From: a virus
Length of the DNA: 64,000 nt
Strand: one strand, 5' to 3'
IMG/VR virus record: IMGVR_UViG_3300006329_000001
Coordinates: 62,001-126,000 of that record
A program made the position numbers and the translations under genes. The notes below the pieces were generated by a model. That model was not told where the DNA came from. It saw only the letters and a list, made by a program, of their open reading frames with translations, and made no database searches. Position 1 is the stretch's first letter; each line of letters opens with the position of its first letter. Positions 7,881 through 11,004 of the stretch are shown piece after piece.

Positions 7881-9383
7881 TTATACCACCACGATGTCTC
7901 CGATCATACCACCATGCTCAGTGCACTGATACTTGTAATTTGTACCAGCTGCAAGTGTCATAGGCACGGTGTATGTTGTTGTTCCTGTTGCTGAACCACT
8001 GACTCCTAAAGTAACTGCAGAACCACCATCTGAAACTCTGATCTCAAATGGATGTGTACTACCAGTTGTATTGTGGAACTTATAAGTAAATCCTCTATAC
8101 ACATAGAATGCAGGATCATCAGCAGTATCAGCTACACCTGGTCCTGTAAATCTATATGCAGAAGTACCATTTGATGATACTGAATACCATAATGTAGGAG
8201 AAGCACCACTTACAACAGCAAAATTCTCATCGAAATGGAATGAATGACCTTTATTAGAAACATCTCCAACTGGGAGATTCTCGTCCACATTAACAGTCAG
8301 TGTATTGCCAGCCATAGCAGTTGTACAACCAGTACCACCAGCTATAGTTAATGTAGTAGTAGCTGCTGCAGCTGCAGTAGATCCTGAATCCCCCGCAACT
8401 GTTTGGAATAAGTTCTGAACGATATTTGGAGCATCGTTAGTGATAGTAATAGCACCTGCGTTGAGGTTAGTGCTAATACCAGTACCACCTAAGAAGTTAA
8501 GACTATCAGTAGTTACAGTAGCTGAAGTTTGTCCATTATCTGCACCGAATGTCTCAAAGAGATTCTGATCAGGATCTCCAAGAGCTCCTGTCATATTGAT
8601 TGTTAAAGTGTCTCCAACCAATGCAGTACCAATGTTTGTACCACCAACAATATTAAAAGTGTCGTTAGGAGCAGATGCAGTGGTTGTACCAGTATCACCA
8701 GTAAATGTCTCGAATAAGTTTTGTGTCGTTCCACCGCTACCACCTGTCCCTTCCTCATCATTAGCAGGTGACCACTTCTGGGTTGATGCAACCCACTTAA
8801 GAACTTGTCCGTCTGAAGGACCACCACTCACAGTGGTATCAACATCACTTAATAATGAAATACTACTGTTTTCTGAGATAAGAGGTACCCAAGCAGCAGC
8901 ATGAGCGAAATATCCTTTACCTGTATCATGTGCATGAGCAAACATACCATGATGATCTGTGGCATTTGGTAATCCTGCTTCAGTGGCGTATGGTGCATAC
9001 CATTTAAAGTATCCATCATCACCATCAACATATGTGTATGCAGATCCAGATCCACCTGCCCAAAGTTTAATATCTCCTGTCCCAGTTTGCTTGATTACTA
9101 TGTCATCAGTACCGTCACAAACGATCTGATTAGCATTTGTATCAAGATTAGAACTTAAAATATTATAGTCACCTGCTCTAAAAGCACCACTGGGACTAGA
9201 AGTCCACTTTAAAACCTGTCCATCAGTCGGTGCTCCACTGATGTCCACTTGGATTGTAGTATCGTTACCTAATGCTGTGTAAAGCTCATCAAAGTTGGCA
9301 TTTACCTTGATGGCACCATCACGCAAAGTATCACCAGTGCCATCATTTGCAGAAGATCCAATACCAACTGATTGTTTAGCCAT
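7881..9383 (-). CDS. Tail-fibre-like structural protein with C-terminal cupredoxin-like domain
   Basis: 500 aa. The N-terminus (VGIGSSANDGTGDTLRDGAI followed by KVNANFDELYTALG) is a pattern common at the head of marine phage fibre and baseplate proteins. Residues ~215-375 hold three ~50-aa repeats, each starting QNLFETF/QTV and followed by GGTxIxT...TLTIN. The last ~80 residues (about 418-500) read like a small cupredoxin: a His in THPFEIRV, then KYQCTEHGGMIGDIVVV, giving the Cys-x2-His-x2-Met order of a type 1 copper site. Copper binding is an inference; the fold could also serve purely as a fibre tip. A CATAAATA box lies 23 bp before the ATG. Confidence 0.75.
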   Translation of the reverse strand: MAKQSVGIGSSANDGTGDTLRDGAIKVNANFDELYTALGNDTTIQVDISGAPTDGQVLKWTSSPSGAFRAGDYNILSSNLDTNANQIVCDGTDDIVIKQTGTGDIKLWAGGSGSAYTYVDGDDGYFKWYAPYATEAGLPNATDHHGMFAHAHDTGKGYFAHAAAWVPLISENSSISLLSDVDTTVSGGPSDGQVLKWVASTQKWSPANDEEGTGGSGGTTQNLFETFTGDTGTTTASAPNDTFNIVGGTNIGTALVGDTLTINMTGALGDPDQNLFETFGADNGQTSATVTTDSLNFLGGTGISTNLNAGAITITNDAPNIVQNLFQTVAGDSGSTAAAAATTTLTIAGGTGCTTAMAGNTLTVNVDENLPVGDVSNKGHSFHFDENFAVVSGASPTLWYSVSSNGTSAYRFTGPGVADTADDPAFYVYRGFTYKFHNTTGSTHPFEIRVSDGGSAVTLGVSGSATGTTTYTVPMTLAAGTNYKYQCTEHGGMIGDIVVV

Positions 9384-9405: not shown

Positions 9406-9413
9406 TATTTATG
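9406..9413 (-). promoter_or_regulatory. T4-type late promoter-like box CATAAATA
   Basis: The minus strand reads CACATAAATAAAACTG, overlapping the stop codon of the YHYH gene and lying 23 bp before the ATG of the 500-aa fibre-like gene. Box and spacing match the one before gp8. Confidence 0.5.
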
Positions 9414-11004
9414 TGGCATCGAACGAGATACCAGTAGTATCCAACGATACGTTGGTACTTGAGAAGTCCTCAGCAGTTTGACCGCCACCAACACCTGTCA
9501 CAGTGAGAGTTGCAACGTCAGTTGTTAGAGGAGAGTTAGTTGCAGGGGTTGCACCCACAGGTCCTGTGATAACACATCTGTATTTGTATCCAGACATGTA
9601 TGACAGAGCAGTGAATGTAAGACTATTAGCAGTAGATCCTGTGATAACAGCAAATGAATATCCACCATCTGTAGATCTGAACCATTGATAAGTCTTAGGA
9701 CCATCCTCAGGACTAATAGATGCAGTAACAGTAAATGTAACTGATGAAGCAACTTCCACTGTAGCACTCTGAGGTTGTGCACCAAGCAATATAGTAGCTG
9801 GTGGTGCCTCACCGCCACCTGCAGGAGGTGCAGGAGGTGTAGCAGCACCATCATTATCTGGTTTCTGCAATACTTCTCTAGTAGTTAATCCAATAAGATA
9901 TGGAAACTGAGGAACTAAATTCTGTTCAGAATCTAATTGAGTAGATAAGAAATATGCATAAGTTCCATTAGGAAATTCAGGTGTTACTGCAAATCTACCA
10001 TTATGGTAATCAAGTGTTCCTAATCCTTCTTGGTATTCCCAATCTTGTATAAGTGATCCTGCAGGTGGATTCTGCTGAGTAGTACCATAAGTAGGTCTTC
10101 CATCTGCTTCCTCTGATTTAACTCTATATGAACTACTTGCTACTGCAATATCAGAACTATTATTCCATGGACTACTATAGATGTAAGGACCATAAACAGG
10201 GAATCCATCAAAAGCAATTCCAACCATTTTAGAATGTCCATCAGGATGTCTTAGATTGTCACCGTTATACTGACTGGAACCATAATAATCATTATATCCT
10301 GCCATTACAGAATTTGCCTTCCAACAAGAAAGGAAATCTGTATCATGATAATGATATTGACCTGTATTTTCAGGATGTCCACCACATGTATCATCACCAA
10401 AATCTACAACAGCATCTTCGAAATGTGCGTTCCAGTTAAATCCAGTAGGAGGGTTACCACCTGCACCTGCACTAGGATTAAAGAAGACGACACCGTTAGA
10501 TGCAACACCAATAGCACCTAAAGGTACTGCAGCTCTTGCATTTCTTTGATCAAAATATTGATAAGTTCCACTATATGTCTCTCTAGTATAATCAACAATC
10601 AACTCAAGATTGGTTGATGTTGCTCTCCAAAATTCTCCAGAAGCAACTGTCTGTTGAGTACCAGTATACTTAAATACTTGCTTCTTTTCATTAGCAGTTC
10701 CTTCATCCAATATGAAAAGGATTCTATCTCCAACTTGTATCGAACTTCCTAATAAAGCATTATCTGCAACAGATATAGGGATACTAATTACAAATCCATT
10801 TTGTGAAAAATTAGCATCATCAAAAGTTCTACTAATACCAAACGTACCACCCCTATAATACCAAGAATGCTCAAAGTCTTGCTCTGTTACATTGTTGGGA
10901 TTATTTACATTAGGAAAGGTACCAAAAGTAACGGGGTTGGGGAGTCCATCCCCGTCCACCGTTATTACTTTGGTTCCTTGATTATATGTTGATGTAGCAG
11001 CCAT
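9409..11004 (-). CDS. YHYH-domain virion protein with C-terminal Ig-like domain
   Basis: 531 aa. The central domain (about residues 180-380) carries the signature tetrapeptide in GQYHYHDTDFLSCW at about residue 215, then HPDGHSKMVGIAFDGFPVYG and GTLDYHNGRFAVTPEFPNGT, the hallmark blocks of the YHYH family. After a Pro/Ala/Gly linker (TPPAPPAGGGEAPP), residues ~400-505 form an Ig-like domain (QPQSATVEVASSVTFTV ... YQWFRSTDGG ... YKYRCVITG). Such domains on virions are usually thought to aid surface contact. It lies 7 bp downstream of the giant ORF, which carries a degenerate copy of the same YHYH region and also ends in an Ig domain, so the two genes may have exchanged parts. Confidence 0.82.
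   Translation of the reverse strand: MAATSTYNQGTKVITVDGDGLPNPVTFGTFPNVNNPNNVTEQDFEHSWYYRGGTFGISRTFDDANFSQNGFVISIPISVADNALLGSSIQVGDRILFILDEGTANEKKQVFKYTGTQQTVASGEFWRATSTNLELIVDYTRETYSGTYQYFDQRNARAAVPLGAIGVASNGVVFFNPSAGAGGNPPTGFNWNAHFEDAVVDFGDDTCGGHPENTGQYHYHDTDFLSCWKANSVMAGYNDYYGSSQYNGDNLRHPDGHSKMVGIAFDGFPVYGPYIYSSPWNNSSDIAVASSSYRVKSEEADGRPTYGTTQQNPPAGSLIQDWEYQEGLGTLDYHNGRFAVTPEFPNGTYAYFLSTQLDSEQNLVPQFPYLIGLTTREVLQKPDNDGAATPPAPPAGGGEAPPATILLGAQPQSATVEVASSVTFTVTASISPEDGPKTYQWFRSTDGGYSFAVITGSTANSLTFTALSYMSGYKYRCVITGPVGATPATNSPLTTDVATLTVTGVGGGQTAEDFSSTNVSLDTTGISFDAT

What the first reader, a model, noticed from the sequence alone, without database searches (positions are those of the whole stretch)
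7884..8130. Cupredoxin-like tip on a phage fibre protein
The last ~80 residues of the 500-aa fibre-like protein have His (HPFEIRV) and Cys-x2-His-x2-Met (CTEHGGM) in the order of a type 1 copper site. A copper protein at a fibre end would be unusual and could mark a receptor-binding or redox role, or be a borrowed fold that lost copper.
Basis: partly seen in the sequence, partly recalled or inferred. Interest (0 to 1): 0.5.

Follow-up and report, generated by a model that had tools for sequence, protein, structure and literature searches.

The report
Copper-protein-like cap on cyanophage baseplate connector
Marine viruses that infect ocean cyanobacteria carry, on a tail-baseplate protein, a module that looks like a blue copper protein with all four metal-holding residues kept, which suggests these virus particles may carry copper on their outside; the binding itself has not been measured.

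Summary
The 500-aa protein (7881-9383, -) is a T4 gp9-type baseplate / tail-fibre connector, not a fibre as such. Its last ~105 residues (7884-8198) are predicted with high confidence (pLDDT 93.3) as a cupredoxin: the 28 Foldseek PDB matches at E<=0.001 are copper-protein cupredoxins; best VIA-align Z 10.5, rmsd 2.3 over 93 residues. H444, C487, H490 and M493 align with the type 1 copper ligands of plastocyanin and amicyanin. In a capped sample collected by the N-terminus only (best 80 loci), 69 of 70 3'-complete ORFs carry the domain, and 65 of 65 distinct domains keep H, C, H and M at ~50% mean identity. The module also sits in other tail proteins of marine cyanophages, including a T7-like podovirus fibre. 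Ten searches of an open-access library showed no report of it. Best reading: a real copper-type site on the virion with a structural or attachment role. Copper binding, ligand geometry, position and function are untested.

The parts
7881..9383 (-). gp9-type baseplate wedge / tail-fibre connector, 500 aa
   Evidence: PF07880 T4_gp9_10_N E 4.1e-10; phrog_677 E 1.8e-146; T4 gp10/gp9 and related chains in the PDB E 8.7e-07 to 1.6e-03
9198..9377 (-). N-terminal gp9/gp10 baseplate-attachment segment, residues 3-62
   Evidence: PF07880 match; aligned to T4 gp10 and gp9
8928..8936 (-). His-Ala-His (HxH) at residues 150-152, in DHHGMFAHAHDTGKGYFAH; candidate second metal motif, not universal
   Evidence: an AHxH is in 40 of 66 distinct gp9 ORFs
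8580..8723 (-). shaft repeat 1 (QNLFETF..., residues 221-268)
   Evidence: read from the sequence
8430..8567 (-). shaft repeat 2 (residues 273-318)
   Evidence: read from the sequence
8280..8417 (-). shaft repeat 3 (residues 323-368)
   Evidence: read from the sequence
7884..8198 (-). cupredoxin-fold C-terminal domain, residues 396-500
   Evidence: AlphaFold2 pLDDT 93.3, pTM 0.85; Foldseek and VIA-align matches to cupredoxins
8052..8054 (-). His444, proposed first copper ligand
   Evidence: invariant in 65 of 65 distinct domains; aligned with the ligand His of plastocyanin and amicyanin
7923..7925 (-). Cys487, proposed thiolate ligand
   Evidence: invariant in 65 of 65; a single Cys in 63 of 65 domains
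7914..7916 (-). His490, proposed ligand
   Evidence: invariant in 65 of 65
7905..7907 (-). Met493, proposed axial ligand
   Evidence: invariant in 65 of 65

Best explanation
The C-terminal 105 residues are a cupredoxin domain with an intact type 1 (blue) copper-type site (H444, C487, H490, M493) that most likely binds copper. By the T4 model (recalled) the gp9 N-terminus plugs into the baseplate and the C-terminal heads of the trimer face the long tail fibres, so the domain would be a metal-locked beta-sandwich head at the baseplate/fibre junction. I think its main role is mechanical: a rigid, exposed, copper-clamped head that holds the long tail fibre or touches the host surface. Electron transfer is possible but not required. 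Shown here: fold (predicted), ligand order, alignment and invariance, and recurrence in other tail proteins of marine cyanophages. Inferred: copper as the metal, the site's geometry, position in the virion, and the role.
For: Fold: pLDDT 93.3; the 28 PDB matches at E<=0.001 are copper-protein cupredoxins, 27 by their titles and 3cvd by recall; VIA-align Z 10.5 to the N-terminal cupredoxin of a three-domain nitrite reductase. Constraint: 12 of 128 columns are invariant in 65 distinct domains at mean identity 0.50, and 4 of the 12 are the ligands (chance for four named columns 4.6e-5, treating columns as independent). This set was collected by the gp9 N-terminus, not by the domain; 7 of the 65 repeat a row of A2 in their last 80 residues. 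Ligand-loop length varies (58 C-x2-H-x2-M, 4 C-x2-H-x3-M, 3 C-x4-H-x2-M of 65) while the ligands stay, as across known cupredoxins (recalled). One Cys in 63 of 65 domains, so no disulfide inside the domain explains it. In 14 named phages whose gp9-type or gp9-annotated head I read, 14 keep H/C/H/M, but these were found by the domain itself. Head role: in the ~217-aa gp9s the domain follows about 105 N-terminal residues directly. Of 11 phages searched and without a match to the gp9 N-terminus, 9 carry the domain in other proteins; the same N-terminal query finds 13 of 14 other phages.
Against: No metal was measured. No coordinates were available, so convergence of the four ligands is not shown. 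Pfam PF00127 is below its cut-off and the NCBIfam amicyanin model far below (15.7 of 110.2 bits). The residue after His444 is Pro in 65 of 65, whereas it is Asn in the amicyanin and plastocyanin aligned; His-Pro at the type 1 site of laccases is only my recall. S-SSM7 has three places with a gp9-type N-terminus but only one domain, in a 251-aa protein elsewhere, so the N-terminus does not always come with the head. Virions are built in the cytoplasm, where free copper is very low (recalled), so loading would have to come after lysis or be by another metal. For a purely mechanical role an invariant Met is more than needed.
Confidence: 0.55

Rival explanations
1. Redox or entry role: the exposed copper site exchanges electrons or copper with a host envelope component and so triggers or aids adsorption to picocyanobacteria.
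For: All four ligands, the axial Met included, are invariant; the Met tunes the potential in cupredoxins (recalled). By first word of the record name, the 341 phage records matched at E<=0.01 are Synechococcus 264, Cyanophage 50, Prochlorococcus 23 and Marine 4. None in Pelagibacter phage HTVC008M or freshwater cyanophage S-CRM01 at E<=1.
Against: No partner protein, no redox data, and no report of such a head in the library searches. By fold alone, viral proteins outside cyanophages match too, e.g. giant-virus 'beta-sandwich' proteins and uncultured Caudovirales, so the fold is not a cyanophage mark.
Confidence: 0.15
2. Copper lure: the phage displays copper so that a host copper-uptake or surface copper-binding protein takes it as cargo, a copper version of the iron Trojan/Ferrojan Horse idea.
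For: Metal-carrying tail proteins have been proposed for iron (HxH motifs; PMC11705849, passages read). The window gp9 itself has one HxH.
Against: Nothing here links the domain to a receptor. Cupredoxin sites hold copper tightly and are half buried (recalled), unlike a cargo site.
Confidence: 0.08
3. Apo scaffold: a cupredoxin fold borrowed as an adhesion domain; the ligands stay for folding reasons or bind zinc.
For: An internal extra copy in some gp9s has Gln in place of the Met (YYWCHHHTGQ; Gln in 4 of 101 rows), and a very weak match in the window's giant ORF lacks the His (E 4.7), so copies without the standard set may exist.
Against: In the main C-terminal domain no ligand is lost in 65 of 65 distinct sequences, with pairwise identity down to 0.27. 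A lone Cys, two His and a Met conserved together are hard to explain without a metal. The AHxH motif of the same protein is kept in only 40 of 66 distinct ORFs, so the conservation is not general.
Confidence: 0.17
4. Chance resemblance of a beta-sandwich fibre domain to cupredoxins.
For: Sequence similarity is weak (E 0.0043 to 0.14).
Against: The fold search matches cupredoxins at E<=0.001 and the ligand columns are among the few invariant ones.
Confidence: 0.03

Closest known systems
Amicyanin / plastocyanin / pseudoazurin (type 1 copper cupredoxins, PF00127)
   Same: Fold, ligand order H...C..H..M, and for amicyanin the same C-x2-H-x2-M loop
   Different: C-terminal domain of a virion baseplate protein, not a soluble electron carrier; His is followed by Pro, not Asn; about 20% identity in the structural matches; below the curated cut-offs
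N-terminal cupredoxin of three-domain nitrite reductase (2dv6, 6tfo) and rusticyanin
   Same: Best structural matches (Z 10.0-10.5, and 8.2-9.1 for rusticyanin)
   Different: Those are parts of redox enzymes or carriers; no catalytic domain here
T4 gp9 (baseplate wedge tail-fibre connector) and gp10
   Same: N-terminal segment (PF07880), neighbours of gp8 and gp6 type
   Different: T4 gp9 (288 aa) is matched only in its first 64 residues; no match to the shaft repeats or the cupredoxin head
PHROG 677, cyanophage gp9
   Same: This protein belongs to it (E 1.8e-146); its profile holds the cupredoxin domain: four other carriers match from position 258-308 to 408-409
   Different: The family is labelled only as baseplate wedge tail fiber connector; copper or cupredoxin is not named
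HxH iron sites of T4 gp37 / Trojan (Ferrojan) Horse tail fibres
   Same: A metal site proposed on a phage tail protein (PMC11705849, passages read)
   Different: Iron by His-x-His in a fibre trimer versus a four-ligand copper-type site inside one domain

Membership tests
Cupredoxin fold | Greek-key beta-sandwich that matches solved cupredoxins | tested here: met
   predicted model only:
Type 1 (blue) copper proteins | His, Cys, His (and usually Met) ligands in order, at aligned positions | tested here: met
Type 1 (blue) copper proteins | Ligands converge in 3D with type 1 geometry | not testable with these tools
   the structure tools return no coordinates; none were in the data folder
Type 1 (blue) copper proteins | Copper bound, absorbance near 600 nm | not testable with these tools
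   needs protein
Pfam PF00127 Copper-bind | Score at or above the gathering cut-off (21.2 bits) | tested here: not met
   window domain 17.9 bits; at E<=0.1, 32 of 54 family members match the model, best E 0.00048
Amicyanin (TIGR02657) | Score at or above 110.2 bits | tested here: not met
   15.7 bits: it is not an amicyanin
T4 gp9/gp10 N-terminal family (PF07880) | Score at or above the gathering cut-off (25 bits) | tested here: met
   40.5 bits
gp9 long-tail-fibre connector | Binds the long tail fibre in the virion | not testable with these tools
   inferred from family and gene order

The most novel reading that the evidence does not exclude
Marine cyanophages carry a redox-competent blue-copper head on the baseplate, and copper or electron exchange with the picocyanobacterial surface takes part in host recognition or in firing the tail.
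Probability: 0.15. Interest if true: 0.88.

Novelty: new variant of a known kind. Interest (0 to 1): 0.6.

Why it matters
T4-like cyanophages are abundant and well-sequenced ocean viruses (recalled), yet this module, present in 69 of 70 gp9 ORFs of the sample, carries no copper label in the families and records that I saw. If it holds copper, copper becomes a part of the virion that can be counted, removed and tested for its effect on adsorption. By recalled numbers (18 gp9 per baseplate, 1e9-1e10 cyanophages per litre) it would hold about 3e-14 to 3e-13 M copper, far below the roughly nanomolar copper of seawater (recalled), so it would matter for infection, not for the ocean's copper budget.

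Tried and rejected
Chance motif: rejected by fold search and ligand survey. The first ligand survey (97 of 97 rows with all four columns present; the other 4 of 101 rows lack the first column and have Gln for Met) was biased, because the search patterns contain His-Pro and Tyr-Gln-Cys; it was replaced by the N-terminus-anchored survey. Limits of that survey: its A3 query rows come from gp9s that carry the domain; one search stopped at 600 pattern matches and kept the best 80 of 575 confirmed loci, so it leans to the window's kin; 11 of 81 ORFs were set aside because the contig ends inside the gene (1 of the 11 shows the domain). The one 3'-complete ORF without the domain is L204 (499 aa). Five of 66 domain rows failed the first regular expression: three with a longer loop, two internal partial copies with Gln.

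Host plastocyanin as source: similarity is weak and no tree with plastocyanins was made, so origin is open. A tree of 53 domains mixes gp9 copies and copies from other virion proteins (7 changes; well-supported branches force at least 3), which suggests exchange, but 23 of 50 inner branches are open and the bootstrap had not settled. Bacterial relatives in genome contigs (19 loci): L098-L102 are gp9 genes by their N-termini, so probably phage contigs in MAGs or assemblies; L107-L116 are weak or partial.

Full-length fold: pLDDT 73.8, pTM 0.34, so domain arrangement is not usable; the 29 matches at E<=0.001 are again cupredoxins (two titles name no protein). T4 gp9 is not among the rows shown; that proves nothing. 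The N-terminal search of 11 phages was empty; I added the control later (13 of 14 found; S-H34 not found). That control also showed that of my 14 named heads only 11 lie in one frame with a gp9-type N-terminus: in S-ShM2 it is in a separate overlapping frame, and the gp9-annotated proteins of S-SSM7 and S-H34 have none. Papers: PMC8115048 (passages) reports a viral nitrite reductase gene, not this domain; PMC10966104 (passages) has copper only as grids; PMC2984593 (passages) lists gene 9 as baseplate socket and petE as a separate gene. Library searches whose listings showed no report of this domain; most subscription journals and all preprints are missing there.

Full report
What is there. The window lies in a 162,717-base virus record. 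Read on the - strand it holds a gp6-like gene, a giant 8,576-aa gene, a YHYH-domain protein, gp9, a 616-aa protein and a gp8-like gene. From the giant gene on, the same five genes with similar lengths lie in cyanophage P-RSM6; gp9, a ~615-aa gene and a baseplate wedge gene follow each other in P-TIM40, S-WAM1 and S-SZBM1 too. The protein at 7881-9383 (-) is a T4 gp9/gp10-type connector: PF07880 40.5 bits against a cut-off of 25, phrog_677 E 1.8e-146. It has an N-terminal baseplate segment, a middle part, three ~48-residue repeats (221-368) and the C-terminal head.

Is it a cupredoxin? The head was folded from an alignment of 54 sequences (A2): pLDDT 93.3, pTM 0.85. Foldseek against the PDB gave 28 matches at E<=0.001: three-domain nitrite reductase, rusticyanin, plastocyanin, amicyanin, pseudoazurin, laccases (the title of 3cvd names no protein, plastocyanin by recall). 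TM-scores are modest (query-normalised 0.39-0.50). VIA-align gave Z 10.5, rmsd 2.3 over 93 residues for 2dv6. A 13-sequence profile found plastocyanin (E 0.019) and amicyanin (E 0.034 and up) with all four ligands aligned. PF00127 stays below its cut-off, so by sequence it is a distant relative. Among predicted viral structures the best matches are cyanophage gp9 and long-tail-fibre proteins, but giant-virus 'beta-sandwich' proteins also match.

Is the metal site kept? Of 81 ORFs with this N-terminus, 70 have an intact 3' end, and 69 of 70 carry the head. Of 65 distinct heads, 65 have H, C, H and M at the ligand columns; 12 of 128 columns are invariant and 4 of these are the ligands; mean pairwise identity is 0.50, minimum 0.27. 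7 of the 65 share their last 80 residues with an A2 row. The loop between the ligands changes length (58, 4 and 3 of 65, with L141 counted as x2) without losing a ligand. 63 of 65 heads have a single Cys. In 14 named phages the head of the gp9-type or gp9-annotated protein keeps all four; 11 of the 14 have the gp9 N-terminus in the same frame. As a contrast inside the same protein, an AHxH is present in 40 of 66 distinct ORFs.

How widespread? tblastn of the head against 50,697 phage records gave 341 with a match at E<=0.01: by first word of the name Synechococcus 264, Cyanophage 50, Prochlorococcus 23, Marine 4. At E<=1 there are 354, three of them with other names (Pseudomonas 2, Phage 1). 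The gp9 N-terminus in contrast matches 1,681 records at E<=0.001, with Escherichia, Klebsiella and others. In viral contigs the scan stopped at 600 pattern matches, 586 of them confirmed. All 20 named records searched with A2 have a match at E<=0.01, but they were chosen because they had matched. P-SSM2 has four matches, in open frames of 566, 1,098 (two) and 1,175 aa; P-HM1 four; podovirus P-GSP1 one, near the N-terminus of a 668-aa tail fibre (phrog_892). Freshwater cyanophage S-CRM01 and Pelagibacter phage HTVC008M have none at E<=1; two phages are too few to prove a host rule. Most copies read in other proteins keep the ligands, but the residue after the first His varies (Pro, Gln, Ala) and one internal copy has Gln for Met. 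S-SSM7 shows that gp9-type N-termini can occur without the head.

What it most likely does. In T4, gp9 joins the long tail fibres to the baseplate (recalled; the family name says the same). The head is the conserved end of this connector in the sampled marine phages, follows the ~105-residue N-terminal part directly in the ~217-aa gp9s, and recurs in other tail proteins: of 11 phages without a match to the gp9 N-terminus, 9 carry the domain elsewhere. I therefore read it as a structural or attachment head whose fold is clamped by a copper-type site. The invariance of the axial Met leaves a redox role open. Not shown: copper, geometry, position, function.

Novelty. Cupredoxins are well known and so is gp9. 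The combination, a type 1 copper-type site on the virion of T4-like marine cyanophages, I did not find in ten searches of the held library, which lacks most subscription journals and all preprints. The domain is in deposited genomes and in PHROG 677, but not named for copper in the labels that I saw.

Noticed in passing
window 11012-36742 (-): A giant 8,576-aa ORF between the gp6-like gene and the YHYH protein; P-RSM6 has a CDS of nearly the same length (103907-129628). Residues ~2936-2987 resemble the start of a cupredoxin-like fibre domain with Tyr where His would be, but only at E 4.7.
   Followed up: partly
window 9409-11004 (-): Neighbouring virion protein with a YHYH domain (PF14240 E 5.6e-37) and a weak Ig-like match near its end; the YHYH part is a possible metal binder (recalled idea, not tested).
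   Followed up: no
window 8928-8936 (-): HxH (His150, His152) in the middle part of the same gp9, like the iron motif proposed for tail fibres; AHxH in 40 of 66 distinct ORFs.
   Followed up: partly
L163 residues 261-301, L164 residues 261-298: Some gp9s have a second, internal cupredoxin-like stretch with C-x2-H-x2-Gln, as in stellacyanin (recalled); L039, L041, L049 and L061 have a second match at the same place.
   Followed up: partly
L226 3944-5944: T7-like Prochlorococcus podovirus P-GSP1 carries the same head near the N-terminus of its tail fibre: module shared across phage families.
   Followed up: yes
L125 1145-2387: In S-ShM2 the gp9 N-terminus and the gp9 head lie in two overlapping annotated CDSs, so the gene looks split or frame-shifted.
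   Followed up: no
L100 (NZ_RMVE01000006.1): A 188,235-base contig filed under Nonlabens xiamenensis carries a gp9 head nearly identical to that of cyanophage P-TIM40 (188,632 bases); probably a phage contig in the assembly.
   Followed up: no
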